A stretch of 41,126 bases of DNA, from assembly GCF_002149035.1 (NCBI RefSeq), contig NZ_NGFP01000049.1, positions 242 through 41,367 on the forward strand. The letters run 5' to 3'. The stretch comes from Streptosporangium minutum. GTDB lineage: Bacteria > Actinomycetota > Actinomycetes > Streptosporangiales > Streptosporangiaceae. Positions 25,691-35,505 of the stretch are shown piece after piece. Position 1 is the first letter of the stretch; each line of letters begins with the position of its first letter. The translations under genes were made by a program, and so were the position numbers. Under the pieces are notes generated by a model. It did no database searches. It saw nothing but the letters and a program-made list of their open reading frames with translations, and had not been told where the DNA came from.

Positions 25691-27826
25691 GTGTCAAAGG
25701 TGATGGACCTTGTCAAGCGCCTGTTCATCGGGCGGGCGCTGCGCAGCACGCAGCTGCATGAGCAATTGCTCCCCAAACGCATCGCATTGCCGGTTTTCGC
25801 AAGCGACGCGCTCTCCTCGGTGGCCTACGCCCCGCAGGAGATCCTCGTCATCCTCTCCATCGCCGGCCTCTCGTTCTACAGCTTCGCCCCGTGGGTCGCC
25901 GTCGCCGTCGTCGTCGTGATGCTCACGGTCGTGGCGTCCTACCGGCAGAACGTGCACGCCTATCCCAGCGGCGGCGGCGACTACGAGGTGGCCACCGTCA
26001 ACCTCGGCCAGAACGCCGGCCTCACCGTCGCCAGCGCCCTGATGGTCGACTACGTCCTCACCGTCGCGGTGTCGGTGGCCAACGGCGTCGACTACGTCGG
26101 CGCCACGATCCCCTACGTCGCCGAGCACAAGCCGCTGGTCGCGATAGCCATCGTCGTCCTGCTGACGCTGGTCAACCTCCGCGGCATCCGCGAGTCCGGC
26201 GGAGCCTTCGCGATCCCCACCTACGCCTTCATGTTCGCGGTCATCGGCCTGATCGTGTGGGGCGGCTTCCGGCTGCTCGTGCTCGGCGACGAACTGCGCG
26301 CCCCCACCGCCGGCTACGAGATCCTCGCCGAGCAGGCCAACATGACGTCCTTCGCGGCGGCCTTCCTCATCCTGCGGGCGTTCTCCTCCGGCTGCGCCGC
26401 GCTCACCGGCGTGGAGGCGATCAGCAACGGCGTGCCCGCCTTCCGCAAGCCCAAGAGCAAGAACGCCGCGACCACGCTGCTGATGATGGGCCTGGTCTCG
26501 GTCGTCATGTTCGTGGGCATCATCTCGCTCGGCATGGCCTCCGGCGTCAAGCTCGCCGACCCCGCCAGGGCCGCCTACGACGTGCTCATCGACGGCAGGC
26601 CCGCGGGGCCCGACTACTACCAGCAGCCGATCATCGCCCAGGTCGCCGAGGCGGTCTTCGGCCACGGCTCGCTGTTCTTCTTCGCCATCGCCGCGGTCAC
26701 CGCGCTGATCCTCTTCCTCGCGGCCAACACCGCCTTCAATGGGTTCCCGGTGCTCGGCTCCATCCTGGCCCAGGACCGTTTCCTCCCCCGCCAGCTGCAC
26801 ACCCGGGGTGACCGGCTGGCCTTCTCCAACGGCATCATCTTCCTGGCCGCCGCCGCGTGCCTGCTGCTGTGGGGCTTCGATGCCGACGTCAGCCGCCTGC
26901 TCAACCTCTACATCGTGGGCGTCTTCGTGTCGTTCACGCTGAGCCAGATCGGCATGGTCCGGCACTGGACCCGGCATCTGAAGACCGAGACCGACTCCTC
27001 GGTCCGCCAGCAGATGAGACGTTCGCGGGCCATCAACTTCTTCGGCGGCGTCATGACCGGCGTGGTGCTGGTGGTCGTGCTGCTCACCAAGTTCACCCAC
27101 GGCGCGTGGATCGTCTGCGTGGCCATGCCGCTGCTGTTCCTGATGATGAAGGCCATCCACCGCCACTACGAGAAGGTGGCCCGCGAGCTCGCCGTCTCCG
27201 AGGACGCCCAGATGGACGAGTCGATGCTGCCGGCCCGCAACCACGCCGTCGTCCTGGTCTCCAAGATCCACAAGCCGACCCTGCGCGCTCTCGCCTACGC
27301 CCGCGCCACCCGGCCCTCGACCCTGGAGGCGCTCACCGTGGGCGTGGAGGGCGAGGAGGCCCGCGCCCTGCAGGAGGAGTGGGAGCGGCGGGGCATCCCG
27401 GTGCCGCTGAAGATGCTCGACTCGCCCTACCGCGAGATCACCCGGCCGATCCTGGAGTACGTCAAGTCGCTGCGCCGCCGCTCGCCCCGCGACGTGGTGA
27501 CCGTCTACATCCCCGAGTACGTCGTCGGCCACTGGTGGGAGCACCTGCTGCACAACCAGAGCGCGCTGCGGCTCAAGGGCCGGCTGCTCTTCCAGCCCGG
27601 AGTGATGGTCACCAGCGTGCCCTGGCAGCTCCACTCCTCCGATCGCCTCAAGGGCCGCCCCGAGCGCTACGCCCCCAACGCCGTCCGCCGCCGGCATCGT
27701 GAGGCGCCCGCGGGGGAGGCGCGCCACGATGAGGCGCTCCGGGAGGAGGAGGCCGCCGTGGAGGAGGCCGTCCGCGACGCGGTGGTCCGTGACGAGATGG
27801 CCCGGGGCGAGGACGGCAAGGCATAA
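25691..27826 (+). CDS. KimA-like APC superfamily potassium transporter
   Basis: 711 residues. About twelve membrane helices fill residues 30-490. The opening LPKRIALPVFASDALSSVAY, followed by APQEI, is the signature seen in B. subtilis KimA (YdaO) and mycobacterial Rv2690c. A C-terminal cytosolic domain (about 500-650) with HAVVLVSKIHKPTLRALAYA resembles the USP-like domain of KimA, which binds c-di-AMP there. The last 45 residues are a charged Arg/Glu tail. KimA is a high-affinity K+/H+ symporter; divergent placement from ceoBC supports a K+ role here. The GTG start at 25691 (SKVMDLVKRLFIGR) fits homologues, though the ribosome site is weak; ATG 25703 is possible. Confidence 0.85.
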   Translation: MSKVMDLVKRLFIGRALRSTQLHEQLLPKRIALPVFASDALSSVAYAPQEILVILSIAGLSFYSFAPWVAVAVVVVMLTVVASYRQNVHAYPSGGGDYEVATVNLGQNAGLTVASALMVDYVLTVAVSVANGVDYVGATIPYVAEHKPLVAIAIVVLLTLVNLRGIRESGGAFAIPTYAFMFAVIGLIVWGGFRLLVLGDELRAPTAGYEILAEQANMTSFAAAFLILRAFSSGCAALTGVEAISNGVPAFRKPKSKNAATTLLMMGLVSVVMFVGIISLGMASGVKLADPARAAYDVLIDGRPAGPDYYQQPIIAQVAEAVFGHGSLFFFAIAAVTALILFLAANTAFNGFPVLGSILAQDRFLPRQLHTRGDRLAFSNGIIFLAAAACLLLWGFDADVSRLLNLYIVGVFVSFTLSQIGMVRHWTRHLKTETDSSVRQQMRRSRAINFFGGVMTGVVLVVVLLTKFTHGAWIVCVAMPLLFLMMKAIHRHYEKVARELAVSEDAQMDESMLPARNHAVVLVSKIHKPTLRALAYARATRPSTLEALTVGVEGEEARALQEEWERRGIPVPLKMLDSPYREITRPILEYVKSLRRRSPRDVVTVYIPEYVVGHWWEHLLHNQSALRLKGRLLFQPGVMVTSVPWQLHSSDRLKGRPERYAPNAVRRRHREAPAGEARHDEALREEEAAVEEAVRDAVVRDEMARGEDGKA

Positions 27827-27887
27827 CCTTTCGTATGTACTCCTGACGACAGGGAGGCTCGACGACGACGGACTGTGGGGGCATGGC

Positions 27888-29126
27888 ATGGCGGTTGAAC
27901 TGACGGTGGGACCGGTCGCGCACGGCGGCTGGTGTGTCGCCCGCCACGACGGCCGGGTGGTCTTCGTACGGCACGCGCTCCCCGGCGAGCGCGTCCTCGC
28001 GGAGATCACCGAGGAGACCAGCCGTTTCCTGCGGGCCGACGCCGTCGAGATCCTGGAGCCCTCCGCCGACCGGGTGACCCCGCCGTGCCCGTTCGCCGGG
28101 CCCGGCCGCTGCGGAGGCTGCGACTGGCAGCACGCCTCCCTCGACGCCCAGCGCCTGTTGAAGACCGACGTGGTCGCCGAGCAGCTCAGGCGGCTGGCCG
28201 GAATCGAGTGGAAGGGCGTCGTCGAGGAGGTGCCCGGCGCCCCCGACGGCCTCGGCTGGCGCACCCGCGTGCAGTTCGCCGTCGACCGTGAGGGCGTCCT
28301 CGGCCTGCGCCGTCACCGCTCCCACGACATCCAGCCGGTGGACGCCTGCCTGATCGCCCATCCGGAGGTGGAGAACGTCGGCGCCGAGGTCATGAACTGG
28401 CGCAACGCCTCCTCGGTCGAGGTCATCGCCTCCAGCGCCGGGGAGCAGGCCGTCGTGGTCGCCCCCCGGCCCCGCCGTACGGTGGCCGTGCCCGACCTCG
28501 ACACGAGCGTGGCCGTCTTCGTCGACGAGGGCAAGGGCCGCACCCGCGTGGTCCACGGCCGCAACCACCTCACCGAGCGCGTCGGCGACCGGGACTTCCA
28601 GGTCACCGGGAGCGGTTTCTGGCAGGTCCACCCGGGCGCCGCGGCCACGCTGCTCGCCACGGTCCTGGAGTTCGCCGCCCCGCAGCCGGGGGAGTGGGCC
28701 CTGGACCTCTACTGCGGTGTCGGCCTGTTCGCCGCGGGCCTGGCCGAGGCCGTCGGCCCCGAGGGCGCCGTGTTCGGCGTCGAGTCCGAGGCCGTGGCCG
28801 TGCGCGACGCCGAACGCAACCTCCGTGACCTGCCCCAGGCCCGCTTCGCCCGGGGCCGCGTCGAGAACGCCCTCGACCGCTTCGGCATCGAGCGCGCCGA
28901 CCTGGTCGTCGTCGACCCGCCCCGGGCCGGTCTGGGACGCGACGTCGTCGGCCGCATCGCCACCCTCCAGGCCGGCCGCATCGTCTACGTCTCCTGCGAC
29001 CCGGCCACCCTCGCCCGTGACATCGCCTGGCTCGCCGACCACGGCTACAGCCTCGCCGACCTGCGCGCCTTCGACGCCTTCCCGATGACCCACCACGTGG
29101 AGTGCGTGGCCCTGCTGGTCAAATAG
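27888..29126 (+). CDS. TrmA/RlmD-family 23S rRNA or tRNA uracil-5 methyltransferase
   Basis: 412 residues. An N-terminal TRAM domain (about 1-55, GGWCVARHDGRVVFVRHALP) binds RNA. Cys67, Cys75, Cys78 (CPFAGPGRCGGC) and Cys154 should hold a [4Fe-4S] cluster. The SAM domain contains LDLYCGVGLFAAGLAEAVG and VVDPPRAGLG, with catalytic nucleophile Cys370 in YVSCDPATLARD. It makes m5U in rRNA or tRNA; the exact site cannot be told. The start at 27888 is chosen because family similarity begins there; the in-frame extension to 27699 overlaps the permease gene. It follows the permease as in M. tuberculosis (Rv2689c/Rv2690c). Its last 8 bp overlap the convergent Clp-N gene. Confidence 0.88.
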   Translation: MAVELTVGPVAHGGWCVARHDGRVVFVRHALPGERVLAEITEETSRFLRADAVEILEPSADRVTPPCPFAGPGRCGGCDWQHASLDAQRLLKTDVVAEQLRRLAGIEWKGVVEEVPGAPDGLGWRTRVQFAVDREGVLGLRRHRSHDIQPVDACLIAHPEVENVGAEVMNWRNASSVEVIASSAGEQAVVVAPRPRRTVAVPDLDTSVAVFVDEGKGRTRVVHGRNHLTERVGDRDFQVTGSGFWQVHPGAAATLLATVLEFAAPQPGEWALDLYCGVGLFAAGLAEAVGPEGAVFGVESEAVAVRDAERNLRDLPQARFARGRVENALDRFGIERADLVVVDPPRAGLGRDVVGRIATLQAGRIVYVSCDPATLARDIAWLADHGYSLADLRAFDAFPMTHHVECVALLVK

Positions 29127-29976: not shown

Positions 29977-31050
29977 CTAGCGGGACATGGCCGTCAGCAG
30001 CCGGGCGACGTCGGAGGTGGGGGCGGCGCCCCGGGTGGACAGCCAGGCCAGCCCGTTGCGGGCGGTGAAGGCGACGAGCTTGCGGGCGTCGGCCGCGGTG
30101 AGATCCCGGGAGCCGGCCAGGACGGGGGTGAGGGCGATCCGGTGCCAGGCGGTGGGCACGCCCAGGGAGCGGGCGACCTGGGCGTGGGCGGCGCGGACGG
30201 CCGAGGCGACGGGCCGCAGGTCCGCCTGGCCGGCGGGGGTGCGCCAGACCGGGGCGAGGAGGTTGACGGCGGTGATCTCGACGCCCGCCTGCCGGCTGGC
30301 GCGGAGCATCGCCTCGTCGCGGGGGGCCAGGCCGGTCCTGGTCACCGGCAGGGTGAAGCTCACGGTGAGCGGACGGCCCCGCGCGGCGGCCTCGCGCTGG
30401 AGGGCCGTGATCGCGCCGGCGCGGCGCAGGACGGTCTCGTCGTCACCCGGATCCTGGACCTCGAAGTCGATGTAGGTGGCGCCGAAGGCTCCGACCGCCC
30501 GGCGGTAGGCGGCGGTGAGGCGGCCGAGGTCGGTGCAGGCGGCGGCCAGCTCGCGGCCGGCCGGACCGCCGAAGGCGAGACCGGCGTCGCCGCCGGCCGC
30601 GCGCAGGCGACCCAGGCGGTTGGCGACCGGATTGCCGTCCTGCTCCTGCCCGCCGCCCCACTCGGGCGTGCAGCCGCGCTGCCCGGCGGTGAGGTGCCCG
30701 AGGGTGAACCAGCGGACGTTGCTCTGCCGGGCGGCCCTGGTCAGGTTGTAGAGCGGATCGCGGACGGTGTCCACGAACGTCACGAAACCCGACGGGCGGA
30801 CGCCGGCGGGGGAGGGCGCCGGTCCGGGCGCCCGGTCGGCCGCGGGCCGGGTGGTCAGATGAGGCGGGCTGACCCTGACGTGGGGCGCCTGGCCGGCCCG
30901 CGCCCAGCCGCCGGTCTCGGCGGGCAGCACCCAGATGGCGAGGCCGGTGCCGGCGACGAGCGCGGCCGACGCGAGCGCGACCAGGGATCGGGGCGGGGTG
31001 CCCGGCTCGCGGGTCCGGCGGGTGGCGGAGCGGTCTGTCGCCACCGACAT
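29977..31050 (-). CDS. Secreted GH18-like (chitinase-related) protein
   Basis: 357 residues. A basic N-terminus and a hydrophobic helix (SLVALASAALVAGTGLAIWVL, about residues 22-41) form a signal anchor or uncleaved signal. A Pro-rich linker to about residue 85 follows, then a TIM-barrel-like domain. Visible GH18-type elements are RWFTLGHLTA, GGDAGLAFGG, and YIDFEV after GAFGAT, which keeps the terminal D-x-E of the catalytic DxxDxDxE signature. Chitin or another glycan is the possible substrate, but the first Asp residues of the motif are absent, so activity is uncertain. ATG 31050 is preferred (GGTGA upstream); GTG 31059 is in frame. Its upstream region is occupied by the right end of the IscB element. 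Confidence 0.72.
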   Translation of the reverse strand: MSVATDRSATRRTREPGTPPRSLVALASAALVAGTGLAIWVLPAETGGWARAGQAPHVRVSPPHLTTRPAADRAPGPAPSPAGVRPSGFVTFVDTVRDPLYNLTRAARQSNVRWFTLGHLTAGQRGCTPEWGGGQEQDGNPVANRLGRLRAAGGDAGLAFGGPAGRELAAACTDLGRLTAAYRRAVGAFGATYIDFEVQDPGDDETVLRRAGAITALQREAAARGRPLTVSFTLPVTRTGLAPRDEAMLRASRQAGVEITAVNLLAPVWRTPAGQADLRPVASAVRAAHAQVARSLGVPTAWHRIALTPVLAGSRDLTAADARKLVAFTARNGLAWLSTRGAAPTSDVARLLTAMSR

Positions 31051-31077
31051 CGGATTCACCAGAATCTGCCGAGGACG

Positions 31078-31097
31078 CCCCGGTCTTCAGGCCGGGG
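31078..31097 (-). repeat. Right-end subterminal hairpin of the IscB element
   Basis: Plus strand CCCCGGTC-TTCA-GGCCGGGG: an 8-bp stem including one T-G wobble. On the iscB strand it follows GATTCCTC, the usual surrounding of right ends in actinobacterial IS605-type elements as I remember them. It ends 18 bp before the GTG of the GH18-like gene. Confidence 0.7.
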
Positions 31098-31146
31098 AGG
31101 AATCGGGAGCGGGAGGGCCGCCAAGGCCCGAGCGTGTCCTGGCCGG

Positions 31147-32454
31147 TCAGTCATTTCGATCAGCTTCTTTCTGAGTCGTGTAGCCGTAGCCGTCCGCGCG
31201 CTGAAGATGACGGACATGCCTGTGGTTGATCCCGGCGACGCGACCGTGCCGGGTAGTGACGTCGAACGAGCCGGAGGATCGGACCAGGACTCGCCCGACG
31301 TGAACCCCGGCTTTCTTGCCTGTCGGGACGTTCGCCCGGACCAGGTCGCCGGTTTGGAAGCCGTGGTGCAATTTGATCCGTGGCCGGAGGAGGCGGGGGA
31401 ACCCGTATCGGTCGGGGGTGGTGCGGGCGTAGGTACCGCGCCCGGTCGCCGTGACCACCAGGACCGTGGACGGCCAGCCGATCACGGTCTCCAGGTGGCC
31501 GACGTGCAGCGCGTCCAACGCGTGCGACTTGGCGGCGCCGGTGCGAGAGCGGTTCCACCTGGTGCGTCCGCCCGACGCCGTCGCGATCGGCAGGCCGGTC
31601 GCCTCCAGCGCCCGCCACAGTGCCCACCGGGTGGCGTTGACGGCGGCGGCGTCGCGCAGCGGAGCCTTGACCTGCCTGAGGATCGTCGCCAGCAGGGCGG
31701 GCCTGGCTTTGAGGAACTCCTCCACGGGGGTGGCGTTCTTGGTCTGGTTGCACGGGACGCAGGCCACGGTCAGGTTGCTGATCCGATCGGAGCCACCTCG
31801 GGAGCGCGGATGGATGTGGTCGATGTTCAGCGGCGCCCCGGAGATTCCGCAGTACGCGCACGCCCGGCCCCATTTGGCCAGTAGGTATTCGCGCACCTCG
31901 TACCCGACGAGGGTGCCCCGCTGGTACTCCGCTCCTGCAAGCGGCCTACCGGCCGACAGGGTATGCGTGTCGAACGCGACCCGCTCCACATGCACGGCGC
32001 TGACGGGTGCCCAGCGCCTCAGGCGGCCCACCCACGACATGGTGGTGTCCACGCGGTGTTTCAGGGACGGCGCGAGCCACCCCTTGGGTTTGGTGCGGTT
32101 GTTGAATCGGGGCGCGCGGTAGCGCAGGTTCCGGGACCTACGTCCCCGGCGCAGCGCAGCCCGCGAGGCGAGCCTGTCGCCGATCGCTGCGCCTCGGTGG
32201 TCGAGCTGGAGCGCGTACCTGCCGGTACGGCTCCCGCCGTGCTCGGTGAACACGGCAATGCCGGTGTGCTTGCTGCCGGGGTCTATGCCGACGTGCACGC
32301 CTGCGACGGTGGAGCCGGCGGCGGTGCGGTCCTTGAGACGGATGACGAACGGGGTGTGACGGTGAACCACAGCCCGGCCTGAGCGCAGGAGTTTCCGCGC
32401 GTAGGCCGGGCTCGTGGGCTGTAGCGGTTGGCCGTGCTTGTCGAGGACGAACAC
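31147..32454 (-). CDS. iscB: IscB, RNA-guided RuvC/HNH DNA nuclease
   Basis: IscB is the transposon-encoded ancestor of Cas9 and uses an omega RNA to cut DNA. Counting from GTG 32454 (435 residues): PLMP-type domain 1-45 (FVLDKHGQPLQP, with Gln for Met); RuvC-I Asp58 in GIDPGSKHTG; Arg-rich bridge helix 100-120 (RRGRRSRNLRYRAPRFNNR); RuvC-II Glu157 in HVERVAFD; HNH 195-240 with CAYCG, IDHIHPRSRGG (Asp212, His213) and CNQTKN; RuvC-III His311/Asp314 in SHALDAL. A C-terminal beta-rich domain likely reads the target-adjacent motif. All catalytic residues are present. A longer reading from ATG 32700 (517 residues, with AAGGAGGTG upstream) is open, but its extra 82 residues lack coding bias. Confidence 0.9.
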   Translation of the reverse strand: MFVLDKHGQPLQPTSPAYARKLLRSGRAVVHRHTPFVIRLKDRTAAGSTVAGVHVGIDPGSKHTGIAVFTEHGGSRTGRYALQLDHRGAAIGDRLASRAALRRGRRSRNLRYRAPRFNNRTKPKGWLAPSLKHRVDTTMSWVGRLRRWAPVSAVHVERVAFDTHTLSAGRPLAGAEYQRGTLVGYEVREYLLAKWGRACAYCGISGAPLNIDHIHPRSRGGSDRISNLTVACVPCNQTKNATPVEEFLKARPALLATILRQVKAPLRDAAAVNATRWALWRALEATGLPIATASGGRTRWNRSRTGAAKSHALDALHVGHLETVIGWPSTVLVVTATGRGTYARTTPDRYGFPRLLRPRIKLHHGFQTGDLVRANVPTGKKAGVHVGRVLVRSSGSFDVTTRHGRVAGINHRHVRHLQRADGYGYTTQKEADRND

Positions 32455-32795
32455 GACCGGGTGGGCTGAACTGCCCGCTCCCTCCCCGGCCGAAGCCAGG
32501 TCGGGGTGACGCCGAGCGGACCGGGTGCCGGTCCGCTCGGTCTCCCCTCGCCCATGTTGAACACCAGGTACCGCCGTGTGGCGGTGTCCATGAGCCGTTT
32601 CGTCCCGACCCTGCGGGGTGTCTGCTCCCACGGATTCCAGAGCGGCAGACTGAGGAAGCACCTGCCGGTGGGTCTGCTGTCTTGTGTTCAACGTAGCCAT
32701 CAAAACGCACCTCCTTGAGCTGATGGCTGGGGCTGGTCAACATGGGGCCATCGGTGCGCGGTGCGGCGCCTCAAGCCCCGGCCTTCAGACCGGGG
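32455..32795 (-). ncRNA. Putative omega RNA scaffold of IscB
   Basis: IscB omega RNAs are encoded just upstream of the ORF, with the guide at the 5' end drawn from sequence outside the left end. This 341-nt stretch is rich in helices: the left-end hairpin (32776-32795); a 10-bp long-range helix between 32737-32746 and 32551-32560 (TCAACATGGG with CCCATGTTGA); a perfect 13-bp hairpin at 32512-32540; and ACCGCC/GGCGGT and GTCTGC/GCAGAC hairpins between them. Codon bias is weak across it although it is open in the iscB frame. The guide would be the 16-20 nt just above about 32795. The exact ends are inferred. Confidence 0.65.
32776..32795 (-). repeat. Left-end hairpin of the IscB element
   Basis: On the iscB strand: CCCCGGTC-TGAA-GGCCGGGG, an 8-bp stem with one G-T pair. 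It differs from the plus-strand form of the right-end hairpin only in the loop. It is probably both the transposition hairpin and the first scaffold helix of the omega RNA. Confidence 0.7.
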
Positions 32796-32942
32796 TCGTT
32801 GACCTTCTCGACGACATCGAATGGTCGCGGAGAGTGTTCGATCCGTTACCAAGCGGACCGAAAGTTTGAACGTTAGCAAGCGGCCGCGACACCGCGCGGG
32901 CTTTCTGTGGATGCCGTCCGGAGTGCCCGGATAATGGGGTTC

Positions 32943-33866
32943 ATGAAGTTGAGGATCTTCACCGAACCGCAGCAGGGTGCCACCTACGACGAGCTGCTGG
33001 CGGTCGCGCAGGCCGCCGAACGTCTGGGTTTCGACGCCTTCTTCCGTTCCGACCACTACATGCGGATCGGGCCGGGCGACCCCGGTCCCGGCCCCACCGA
33101 CGCCTGGGTGACCCTCGCGGCTCTGGCCAGGGAGACCTCCACCCTCAGGCTCGGCACCCTGGTCACCCCGGTCACCTTCCGGTTGCCCGGCCCGCTGGCG
33201 ATCAGCGTGGCCCAGGTGGACCAGATGAGCGGGGGCCGGGTCGAGCTGGGCCTGGGCACCGGCTGGTTCGACGCCGAACACACCGCGTACGGGATCCCGT
33301 TCCCGCCCGTGGGCGAGAGGTTCGGCCGGTTCGAGGAGCAGCTGGAGATCCTCACCGGCCTCTGGACCACGCCCGCGGGCGAGACGTTCTCATTCGAGGG
33401 CGCCCACTACCGGCTGGCGGACTCGCCCGCGCTGCCCAAGCCCGTGCAGAGCCCCAGACCGCCGATCATCATCGGCGGGTTCGGGGCCAAGCGCACCCCC
33501 CGGCTGGCCGCGCGGTTCGCCGACGAGTACAACCTGCCCTTCCACACCCTGGACGACACCGGGCTGGCCTACGGCCGGATCCGGCAGGCGTGCGAGGCGG
33601 AGGGACGTTCGCAGATCGTGCTCTCGGCGGCCCAGACCGTCGCCGTCGGCGCCGATGACGCCGAGATCGCGCGCCGGGCCGAGGCGGCCGGACAGGATCT
33701 CGCCGCGCTCCGCACGAGCGGTCTGGCGGGCACCCCCGCCGAGGTGGTCGACAAGATCGGCCGGTTCGCCGAGCTGGGCGCCGAGCGGATCTACCTCCAG
33801 GTGATGGACCTGTCGGACCTGGACCACCTGGAGCTCATCGCCGCCGAGGTCCTGCCCCACGTGTAG
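32943..33866 (+). CDS. LLM class F420-dependent oxidoreductase
   Basis: 307 residues of the luciferase-like monooxygenase fold. Typical features are KLRIFTEPQQGATYDELL at the start, DAFFRSDHY, LRLGTLVTPVTFRLPGPLAISVAQVD (read as LRLGTLVTPVTF then RLPGPLAISVAQVDQMSGGR), ELGLGTGWFDAEH and PPIIIGGFGAKRTPRLAARFADEYN. The lack of a flavin reductase partner and the actinobacterial setting favour F420H2 as cofactor. The substrate is unknown. ATG 32943 is chosen by family similarity; ATG 32934 is in frame with GGAG further upstream. A bulged 15-bp hairpin follows the stop, so it is probably a single-gene unit. Its upstream side borders the left end of the IscB element. Confidence 0.85.
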   Translation: MKLRIFTEPQQGATYDELLAVAQAAERLGFDAFFRSDHYMRIGPGDPGPGPTDAWVTLAALARETSTLRLGTLVTPVTFRLPGPLAISVAQVDQMSGGRVELGLGTGWFDAEHTAYGIPFPPVGERFGRFEEQLEILTGLWTTPAGETFSFEGAHYRLADSPALPKPVQSPRPPIIIGGFGAKRTPRLAARFADEYNLPFHTLDDTGLAYGRIRQACEAEGRSQIVLSAAQTVAVGADDAEIARRAEAAGQDLAALRTSGLAGTPAEVVDKIGRFAELGAERIYLQVMDLSDLDHLELIAAEVLPHV

Positions 33867-33963: not shown

Positions 33964-35505
33964 GTGTTGCTCACGATCTCCACGACCGTACGGCCCGCCA
34001 CCGACCTCGGTTTCCTGCTGCACAAGCACCCGGACCGGGTTCAGGAGTTCGGCCAGTCGTACGGCACGGCCCGCGTCTTCTACCCGGAGGCGGGCGAGGA
34101 GCGCTGCACGGCGGCGCTGATGCTCGATGTCGACCCGGTCCGCCTGGTGCGCTCGCGCGGCCGGTCCACCCCCGACTACGCGCTGGGCCAGTACGTCAAC
34201 GACCGGCCCTACGCCGCGTCGTCGCTGCTGGCCGTGGCGCTGGCGGACGTGTTCCGCACGGCCCGCACCGGCCGCTGCGACAGCCGTCCGGAACTGGCCG
34301 CCGGCCCCATCCCGCTGGAGATCACGCTGCCCGTGCTGCCCTGCCGGGGCGGTCCCGAGATGGCCCACCGGTTCTTCGGACCGCTGGGCTGGACGGTCGA
34401 GGCCCAGGCCGTACCGCTGGACGAGGGGTTCCCCGAGTGGGGCGACTCCCGTTACGTACGGCTGTCGCTGCGCGGCGAGGTACGGCTGGCCGACGCGCTC
34501 AACCACCTCTACGTGCTGCTGCCGGTGCTCGACGACGCCAAGCACTACTGGATCGCCTCCGACGAGGTGGACAAGCTGATCCGGGCGGGCGAGTCCTGGC
34601 TGGCCGCCCACCCCGACAGGAGCCTGATCACCCGCCGCTACCTCGGCCGCCGCTGGGCCCTCGCCCGCACCGCCTTCGCCCGCCTGGCCGAGCTCGGGGA
34701 CGACGTGGAGGAGGACCTCGAACCTCCCGTCGAGGAGGATCCCGCGGCCGACCCCGGGCCGCCGGCGGACGCGCCCCCCTCGGAGGAGCCCGCAGGCGAG
34801 CTTCCGGCGGTGCCCGCCGGTGAGCCTCCGGCGGCGCCCGCAGGGGAGGCGCCGGGGGAGCGGGAGGCCGCCCCCAAGCGGCCCCTGAACGTCCTGCGCC
34901 GGGAGGCGGTGCTCGAGGCGCTGGCGGAGTCCGGGGCGCACAGCGTCATCGACCTGGGATGCGGGTCCGGGCAGCTGGTCGGGGCGCTGCTGGACAGGCC
35001 GGAGTTCACCAAGGTGGCCGGGGTGGACGTGTCGGCGCAGGCGCTGGCGATCGCCGCCAGGCGGTTGAGGCTCGACCGGATGCCCGACCGCCGGCGGGAA
35101 CGGCTGCAGCTGTTCCAGGGGGCGCTGACCTACACCGACGACCGGTTCGCCGGATACGACGCCGCCGTTCTCATGGAGGTCGTCGAGCACGTCGACCCGC
35201 CGCGGCTGAACGCGCTGGAGCGGGTCGTCTTCGGCGCCGCCCGGCCGGGGCACGTGATCGTGACGACCCCCAACGCCGAGTACAACGTGCGCTACGACTT
35301 CCTGGAGGGCATGCGCCACCCCGACCACCGCTTCGAGTGGACGCGGGCGGAGTTCCAGGCGTGGGCGGCGGAGGTCTGCCGCGAGTACGGCTACCACGTC
35401 GCCTTCCGGCCGGTCGGCGACGACGACCCCGAGCTGGGGCCGCCCACCCAGATGGCCCTGTTCGGCAGGGGAAGCGCCGCGAACGCGGGAGGCGGAGATG
35501 ACTGA
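33964..35505 (+). CDS. hen1: Hen1, 3'-terminal RNA ribose 2'-O-methyltransferase
   Basis: 513 residues. Residues 1-245 are the bacterial Hen1 N-terminal domain (LLTISTTVRPATDLGFLLHKHP, GRSTPDYALGQYVNDRPYAASS), which interacts with Pnkp. A Pro/Glu/Ala linker with repeats (PAGELPAVPAGEPPAAPAGE) spans about 250-300. The C-terminal SAM methyltransferase has IDLGCGSGQLVGALL and the Mn2+ site E405-x2-E408-H409 (MEVVEHVD), plus His in HPDHRFEWTRAEF. It methylates the 2'-OH at the 3' end of a broken RNA before sealing, which blocks repeat cleavage by ribotoxins. The start is GTG 33964. Its last 8 bp overlap pnkp, so the two are cotranslated. Confidence 0.93.
   Translation: MLLTISTTVRPATDLGFLLHKHPDRVQEFGQSYGTARVFYPEAGEERCTAALMLDVDPVRLVRSRGRSTPDYALGQYVNDRPYAASSLLAVALADVFRTARTGRCDSRPELAAGPIPLEITLPVLPCRGGPEMAHRFFGPLGWTVEAQAVPLDEGFPEWGDSRYVRLSLRGEVRLADALNHLYVLLPVLDDAKHYWIASDEVDKLIRAGESWLAAHPDRSLITRRYLGRRWALARTAFARLAELGDDVEEDLEPPVEEDPAADPGPPADAPPSEEPAGELPAVPAGEPPAAPAGEAPGEREAAPKRPLNVLRREAVLEALAESGAHSVIDLGCGSGQLVGALLDRPEFTKVAGVDVSAQALAIAARRLRLDRMPDRRRERLQLFQGALTYTDDRFAGYDAAVLMEVVEHVDPPRLNALERVVFGAARPGHVIVTTPNAEYNVRYDFLEGMRHPDHRFEWTRAEFQAWAAEVCREYGYHVAFRPVGDDDPELGPPTQMALFGRGSAANAGGGDD

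What the first reader, a model, noticed from the sequence alone, without database searches (positions are those of the whole stretch)
31078..32795. Intact IscB RNA-guided nuclease on a non-autonomous IS605-type element
The protein keeps every catalytic residue of both RuvC (Asp58, Glu157, His311/Asp314) and HNH (Asp212, His213), has a bridge helix and a C-terminal recognition domain, and is framed by two near-identical subterminal hairpins without TnpA. IscB elements are far rarer than TnpB. An intact copy in the core chromosome of an actinomycete, with its presumed omega RNA, is a candidate for an uncharacterised high-GC IscB.
Basis: partly seen in the sequence, partly recalled or inferred. 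Interest (0 to 1): 0.92.

Follow-up and report, generated by a model that had tools for sequence, protein, structure and literature searches.

The report
IscB mobile element targeting start codons
An intact RNA-guided DNA-cutting element (IscB) sits in a soil actinomycete genome; related copies tend to land right at the start codons of ordinary genes, and the nuclease gene itself appears to begin inside its own guide RNA.

Summary
Window 31060-32803 (1744 bp, minus strand) is a complete, TnpA-less IS200/IS605-type IscB element. A same-genus relative has the empty site without target duplication, which fixes guide (…CGATGTCGTCGAGAAG) and adjacent motif (GTGAA). It is the only full copy in its genome. 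Related copies added three things. (1) The motif is RTGA; 37 of 53 distinct insertion sites are start-codon-like, against 317 of 5264 control RTGA sites; targets include dnaN, ruvA, hisB, pth and IMP-dehydrogenase genes. (2) In the window's lineage the end facing the host gene carries a Shine-Dalgarno in 24 of 26 copies; the window copy's is decayed, and a second lineage lacks it. (3) In actinomycete loci the iscB frame opens inside the ωRNA, behind GGAGG: 77 of 80 loci are in one frame (23 of 26 distinct lengths), although the encoded extension is unconserved. Likely mechanism: insertion behind a host promoter makes the host transcript supply the guide; one RNA is both guide and message. New variant of a known kind; nothing was tested experimentally.

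The parts
31060..32803 (-). Whole IscB element, 1744 bp, between host sequences; no target-site duplication
   Evidence: Empty site in G005 (L145) and homologous copies ending at the same bases; +/-1 base ambiguity because both junctions are followed by C
32536..32803 (-). ωRNA scaffold (HEARO, RF02033); its first base is the first base of the element
   Evidence: cmscan 89.9 bits, model 1-211 complete
32804..32819 (-). Guide, about 16 nt of host sequence 5' of the scaffold (CGATGTCGTCGAGAAG)
   Evidence: Flank of the element; guide length taken from OgeuIscB (PMC9640706 passages); expression not tested
31055..31059 (-). Target-adjacent motif GTGAA next to the 3' end (TTCAC on + strand)
   Evidence: Junction; RTGA in 10 of 10 rows whose 3' end came from alignment alone
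31078..31097 (.). Subterminal hairpin at the iscB 3' end
   Evidence: Inverted repeat; end region similar to those beside Y1-transposase genes in the same genome
32776..32795 (.). Subterminal hairpin at the ωRNA 5' end
   Evidence: Inverted repeat; first hairpin of the HEARO model
31147..32454 (-). Conserved iscB coding part (435 aa from GTG, as the family is normally annotated)
   Evidence: NF040563, PF14239, HNH; residues
31147..32700 (-). Proposed full iscB frame (517 aa from ATG inside the ωRNA)
   Evidence: Open frame; frame and start kept in relatives
32710..32716 (-). AAGGAGG Shine-Dalgarno in an ωRNA hairpin loop (arms 32721-32727 and 32696-32702), 9 nt before ATG 32700
   Evidence: GGAGG before the landmark in 76 of 80 loci; GGAGGTG invariant in 19 of 19 aligned; hairpin read
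31060..31073 (-). 3' tail CTCGGCAGATTCTG, decayed form of the Shine-Dalgarno tail CTCGGGAGGTTCTG of close relatives
29977..31059 (-). Host gene next to the motif (360 aa, no Pfam or NCBIfam match at 1e-5); relatives suggest its real start is the ATG 9 nt after GTG

Best explanation
This is an intact OMEGA/IscB element moved by Y1 (TnpA) transposases acting in trans. TnpA inserts it as a single strand next to TTCAY, so in the iscB direction the host sequence before the element becomes the guide and the sequence after it is the RTGA motif. The IscB-ωRNA complex cuts copies of the empty site (guide + RTGA) and spares the filled site, where RTGA is replaced by GTCA; repair from the filled copy retains or spreads the element. 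Because the guide is the 5' end of the RNA, a promoter must lie outside the element; insertion at start codons places it behind a host promoter in the right orientation. In Actinomycetota the same transcript is message and guide: ribosomes start at a Shine-Dalgarno/NTG inside an ωRNA hairpin and read an unconserved extension into IscB, so folding or IscB binding would be expected to shut off translation (autoregulation). In the window's lineage the other end re-supplies a Shine-Dalgarno to the host gene. Shown by sequence: identity, ends, motif, empty site, start-codon bias, frame keeping. Inferred: cutting, TnpA in trans, promoter capture, translation start, autoregulation, rescue of the host gene.
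For: Identity. Ends and empty site; a second case at a hisB start, six genomes fetched without the element. Start-codon bias: 37 of 53 distinct sites vs 317 of 5264 controls (p 3e-32), and 37 of 52 vs 204 of 1936 after dropping coding interiors (p 8e-24); kept over 15 threshold settings with the window left out; native Shine-Dalgarno of 4+ nt before the motif in 35 of 55 vs 938 of 5264. Pfam domains starting at residue 1 (dnaN, ruvA) and other housekeeping families downstream. Tail Shine-Dalgarno 24 of 26 vs shuffle mean 5.3, highest 11. Frame: 77 of 80 loci, 23 of 26 distinct lengths in frame (p 9e-9), NTG in frame at the exact place in 75 of 80. Internal control: 5' end to landmark, 15 distinct lengths split 6/5/4 over the frames. 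Outside Actinomycetota 27 of 28 loci, by eye, have a start codon within 24 nt before the conserved part. Self-protection: the only match to guide+NTGA in the own genome with fewer than 2 mismatches is the element's own junction, which has GTCA.
Against: The extension shows no codon-position signal (ωRNA part 5077/6531/5406, linker 4358/4641/4856, iscB 11661/9641/24603), so no selection on its residues. NCBI annotates a Streptomyces plasmid relative from the later start, though that locus lacks the CTACGTT landmark and is not among my 80. Only 2 of 40 relatives pass Rfam's HEARO cut-off, so in most loci 'ωRNA' rests on position, end motifs and the landmark. GGAGGTG could be a structural RNA element. 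The second lineage (5' end GTA) has a tail Shine-Dalgarno in only 4 of 27, not beyond shuffles (mean 1.6, highest 6), yet sits before genes such as pth; the rescue idea does not cover it. In the window copy the tail Shine-Dalgarno is decayed and GTG is probably not the native start. The guide has two differences from the G005 empty site, 5 and 6 nt from the motif, so that relative may not be cut. Survival bias could produce the start-codon bias. Relatedness of copies is not corrected for.
Confidence: 0.72

Rival explanations
1. Ordinary IscB translated from GTG 32454 with a purely non-coding ωRNA upstream; the upstream frame is open only because the DNA is GC-rich and the RNA is conserved.
For: NCBI annotation of one Streptomyces relative uses the later start; another frame is also long (mean 75 vs 99 codons); no codon-position signal in the extension; published curation picks the downstream start (PMC13180657 passage).
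Against: GC content does not explain lengths differing by multiples of three (23 of 26), nor an in-frame NTG at one exact place in 75 of 80. No Shine-Dalgarno is seen before GTG 32454. In the alignment, 8 of the 9 sequences with the GTCGATC arm keep TTG at the cost of a wobble pair, one has the fully paired TCG.
Confidence: 0.2
2. The start-codon bias is survival, not choice: TnpA hits RTGA anywhere and only insertions that spare coding sequence persist; tail Shine-Dalgarnos are kept because copies with them hurt less.
For: 52 of 53 sites lie outside coding interiors. RTGA is a natural start-codon motif.
Against: Among non-interior RTGA sites the start-like fraction is only 204 of 1936, against 37 of 52; survival would have to favour start codons over other non-coding sites, e.g. 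because only there is the guide transcribed. Not exclusive of the main explanation.
Confidence: 0.4
3. A domesticated or dead relic acting as a guide-directed repressor rather than a mobile nuclease.
For: Single full copy, tail Shine-Dalgarno decayed.
Against: Catalytic residues intact, frame open, site empty in relatives.
Confidence: 0.05

Closest known systems
IscB OMEGA nucleases with solved structures (OgeuIscB, TbaIscB, HfmIscB)
   Same: Split RuvC with inserted HNH, bridge helix, 5'-guide ωRNA, motif 3' of the target; best PDB sequence matches and, by E-value, best Foldseek matches (TM 0.35-0.49 by query length) (PMC9640706 passages)
   Different: Different adjacent motif (RTGA here; NWRGNA for engineered OgeuIscB and NTAAA for OrufIscB per PMC13180657 passages); start codon inside the ωRNA; an extension of about 76-104 aa, predicted disordered in the window protein
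HEARO RNA RF02033
   Same: Full-length match of the window copy, same place relative to the ORF
   Different: Carries an inserted Shine-Dalgarno loop and start codon relative to the Rfam consensus. Passages of PMC9755519 place HEARO in the 5' UTR. I recall, without having seen it here, that Weinberg et al. 2009 reported HEARO elements next to ATGA or GTGA; if so the RTGA rule is not new
IsrB nickases (DtIsrB)
   Same: NTGA adjacent motif (PMC9581776 passages)
   Different: IsrB lacks HNH; ours has an intact one
TnpB / ωRNA of IS200/IS605
   Same: Shared transposon end region in this genome; guide RNA made from the nuclease's own transcript (PMC10278001, title and abstract start only)
   Different: Mirror image (recalled): TnpB's guide RNA is at the 3' side of its message; here the overlap is at the 5' side
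IStrons (PMC4227781, abstract start only)
   Same: A mobile element with a device that makes insertion harmless
   Different: Self-splicing there; here a replaced ribosome-binding site at a start codon (proposed)

Membership tests
IscB (NF040563) | Family profile over curated cut-off | tested here: met
   424.1 bits vs 175
IscB (NF040563) | RuvC and HNH catalytic residues | tested here: met
   D58, E157, D212/H213, H311, D314; alignments; OgeuIscB residues D61, E193, H247, H340, D343 from PMC9640706 passages
IscB (NF040563) | Cognate ωRNA upstream with 5' guide | tested here: met
   RF02033 89.9 bits over 83; only presence, not expression
IscB (NF040563) | RNA-guided cleavage with 3' adjacent motif | not testable with these tools
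   Motif inferred from empty site and copies; no cleavage data
IS200/IS605 element | Precise insertion without target duplication next to a short fixed motif | tested here: met
   Empty site in G005; second case at hisB
IS200/IS605 element | Subterminal hairpins recognised by TnpA | tested here: inconclusive
   Hairpins present; iscB 3' end region 88% identical over 66 nt to the end region of a tnpA-tnpB locus; recognition not tested
IS200/IS605 element | Own Y1 transposase | tested here: not met
   None of the genome's 14 Y1_Tnp hit stretches (several are pieces of one gene) is on the window's contig; the element is non-autonomous
Cas9 | Cas9 profile over cut-off | tested here: not met
   Cas9d 47.7 vs 375; no search for a CRISPR array was made

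The most novel reading that the evidence does not exclude
Actinomycete IscB elements are start-codon parasites that turn a host gene's 5' leader into a guide and use one RNA molecule as both guide scaffold and nuclease message: the ribosome starts inside the folded ωRNA, so each transcript must be either guide or message and the IscB complex represses its own synthesis, while in one lineage the far end of the element re-supplies a ribosome-binding site so that even essential genes tolerate it.
Probability: 0.5. Interest if true: 0.78.

Novelty: new variant of a known kind. Interest (0 to 1): 0.62.

Why it matters
If right, it answers where a promoterless 5'-guide RNA gets its promoter (from the host gene whose start codon is the adjacent motif), shows a guide RNA scaffold that is itself translated, and suggests how such elements persist in front of genes such as dnaN and ispE-like kinases. 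It also warns that expressing actinomycete IscBs from the annotated start, or trimming 'N-terminal insertions', removes the native coupling, and that the native ωRNA contains a ribosome-binding site. All of this is directly testable with one plasmid in Streptomyces or E. coli.

Tried and rejected
Considered and rejected. Plain HNH endonuclease or Cas9 (profiles). Immobile relic (empty site). Upstream-gene stop restoration as the main rule: the 5' ends GTAA or GTCAAC…TGA do close an upstream frame that ended at the TGA of RTGA, but only 6 of 55 sites look like stop-start overlaps (105 of 5264 controls), so it is a side remark. Conserved protein function of the extension (codon-position counts; pLDDT about 26 for residues 1-70). 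MFE folding as evidence for the ωRNA (z -0.35). Rfam at gathering threshold to find 5' ends in 40 relatives gave HEARO hits in only 2, so I used end motifs instead. That 5'-end finder is a heuristic, and L261's 3' junction is probably misplaced.

Limits of the counts. 117 locus ids were given, 103 distinct loci came out; 62 got a 3' junction from a finder that requires RTGA 13-28 nt after a hairpin, so RTGA in those 62 is by construction. The independent check is (10 of 10 rows). Of the 41 without a junction, 8 do not reach query residue 425; among the other 33 at least eight show ATGA on reading. 55 copies (54 loci and the window) had both ends; L231 and L267 were dropped as duplicate sites. 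The frame test used 80 of 89 loci with a full N-terminus; 9 had no CTACGTT-like landmark. Controls and codon model come from the same loci. Pfam was run on 40 proteins: 39 of the 45 downstream ORFs, plus the window gene (at 1e-5; 89, 90 at 1e-8); 35 of the 40 had a match, and L048, L213, L217, L266 and the window gene had none. Relatedness among copies is not corrected for.

Literature: 10 searches showed me no title, abstract start or passage reporting start-codon targeting, a tail ribosome-binding site or an iscB start inside the ωRNA; many listings were cut and only four papers were opened, as passages. The founding papers are not held, so this is weak evidence of absence.

Full report
WHAT IS THERE. 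The ORF on the minus strand (stop at 31147) matches RRXRR and HNH in Pfam and 'RNA-guided endonuclease IscB' at 424.1 bits against a cut-off of 175. Solved IscBs are its best matches by sequence and, by E-value, by fold (the model is modest, mean pLDDT 61.5). At gathering threshold Rfam finds one RNA in the 41 kb window, HEARO (the IscB ωRNA), complete, at 32536-32803 on the same strand.

ENDS, EMPTY SITE, GUIDE AND MOTIF. A search of 16 genomes of the genus, own included, showed the flanks contiguous in G005 (96% identity). The joined window flanks align to it without a gap and without duplication, which gives element ends 31060 and 32803. Eight relatives were fetched and aligned at this site: seven have no element (small indels only) and G011 has a 46-nt insert there, which reads as 5' end, one hairpin and 3' end, a likely deletion derivative. 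In the iscB direction the junctions are …CGATGTCGTCGAGAAG | GTCAACGACC…CGGCAGATTCTG | GTGAATCC. The guide is therefore …GTCGTCGAGAAG and the adjacent motif GTGAA; the filled site carries GTCA after the guide. In its own genome no other guide + NTGA match has fewer than 2 mismatches. The relative G005 differs from the guide at two bases, 5 and 6 nt from the motif.

COPIES AND MOVERS. The genome (9.58 Mb, 548 contigs) holds one full IscB and one weak HNH-only hit below the cut-off, 14 Y1-transposase hit stretches, some of them pieces of one gene, and 11 OrfB_IS605 hits, 9 over the cut-off. Seven other places share the iscB 3' end region; the best (88% over 66 nt, C261) lies beside a Y1 transposase and a TnpB. 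Mobilisation in trans is therefore plausible but inferred. Of 297 same-family genomes 47 have an IscB over the cut-off.

START-CODON TARGETING. Where the 3' end came from alignment alone, the next bases are RTGA in 10 of 10 rows. I then fetched more copies, found 3' junctions in 62 of 103 loci (RTGA is required there) and both junctions in 55 copies including the window. I scored each joined empty site with a codon model trained on long ORFs of the same loci: 'start-like' means coding after the RTG and not before it. Result: 37 of 53 distinct sites against 317 of 5264 RTGA control sites in the flanks; after removing coding interiors, 37 of 52 against 204 of 1936. The excess holds over 15 threshold settings with the window left out. 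A native Shine-Dalgarno of 4 or more bases precedes the motif in 35 of 55 against 938 of 5264. Downstream proteins include DnaN and RuvA, with their Pfam domain starting at residue 1, HisB (twice), a histidine-biosynthesis enzyme, IMP dehydrogenase, homoserine dehydrogenase, fumarase, peptidyl-tRNA hydrolase, a protein with a thymidylate-kinase domain and GHMP kinases (names other than Pfam's are my reading). Two GHMP-kinase genes are hit by elements with different 5' ends (L233, L256). For L202, six fetched genomes, including the window's own, have the hisB start without the element; the alignments need gaps of about 12-15 nt a few codons inside hisB. Several proteobacterial IscBs also end at ATGA followed by plausible gene starts (read by eye, not counted).

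A SHINE-DALGARNO AT THE END. In copies whose 5' end is GTC/ATC (the window's lineage) the last bases before the host RTG hold a Shine-Dalgarno in 24 of 26 (mean of 500 shuffles 5.3, highest 11), 4-7 nt from the RTG. In copies with a GTA 5' end it is 4 of 27 (mean 1.6, highest 6). The window copy is one of the two exceptions: GGCAGA instead of GGGAGG. In relatives the GTG at the window's motif is not always kept, and an ATG 9 nt further is, so the window insertion probably lies just before the true start, inside the ribosome-binding region.

A START CODON INSIDE THE GUIDE RNA. In the alignment of 19 ωRNAs GGAGGTG is invariant and lies in a hairpin loop whose 3' arm holds ATG, TTG or, once, TCG. 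This NTG opens a frame running into iscB. Over 80 actinomycete loci (of 89 with a full N-terminus) the landmark-to-iscB distance takes 26 values from 223 to 344 nt, 23 of them in one frame (binomial p 9e-9); 77 loci are in frame, 78 open and 75 have NTG in frame at the exact place. The stretch from the element's 5' end to the same landmark, in 51 copies, has no frame preference (15 lengths: 6, 5, 4). In 28 loci of other phyla the frame before iscB is open for 56 codons or fewer in 26, and 27, by eye, have a start codon within 24 nt of the conserved part. Against: the extension is unconserved by codon position and, in the window protein, predicted disordered; only 2 of 40 relatives pass Rfam's HEARO cut-off. 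Reading: ribosomes do start in the ωRNA and need the frame, but not the peptide. Published curation replaced such starts by downstream ones (PMC13180657, passage), and NCBI annotates a Streptomyces plasmid copy from the later start (that locus lacks the landmark).

MECHANISM. Shown: identity, ends, motif, empty site, start-codon bias, frame keeping. Inferred: TnpA in trans; transcription from the host promoter, which a 5' guide requires; translation from the ωRNA hairpin and its likely shut-off when IscB binds; cleavage of empty sites and repair from the filled copy; rescue of the host gene by the tail Shine-Dalgarno. The last does not explain the GTA lineage.

KNOWN AND NEW. IscB, HEARO/ωRNA and the guide + motif logic are known; NTGA is a published motif of IsrB (PMC9581776, passages). 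I recall that ATGA/GTGA next to HEARO was noted in 2009, and that ATGA was reported for a proteobacterial IscB; neither paper could be seen. The start-codon statistics, the tail Shine-Dalgarno and the in-ωRNA start did not appear in what I saw of 10 searches of an open-licence library that lacks the founding papers. Papers were seen as search listings, abstract starts or passages only.

Noticed in passing
L148 (G011:C1:1358300-1360700), about 1245-1292: A 46-nt insert at the same site as the window element: 5' end, a single hairpin and a 3' end with a Shine-Dalgarno, i.e. a likely minimal deletion derivative that may act as a ribosome-binding site.
   Followed up: partly
G000:C261, C503, C401, C28, C90, C212, C515 (L002-L008): The iscB 3' end region recurs at seven other places in the genome, some beside Y1 transposase and TnpB genes, one (C261) ending in GGGAGGAACTG before an ATG.
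   Followed up: partly
L202 and L236; L233 and L256: Elements at the start of hisB in two genomes, and elements with different 5' ends at the start of GHMP-kinase (probably ispE) genes: possible repeated targeting of the same gene starts.
   Followed up: no
L162 (G001:C1:2904300-2905900), 505-1050: A 546-nt internally deleted IscB element that keeps both ends and GTGAA.
   Followed up: no
window 33964-35505: Bacterial Hen1 RNA 2'-O-methyltransferase gene (TIGR04074, 692 bits) close to the element.
   Followed up: no
window 32907-33866 and 27699-29126: F420-dependent LLM oxidoreductase (TIGR03560) and RlmD-like methyltransferase (TIGR00479): ordinary neighbours.
   Followed up: no
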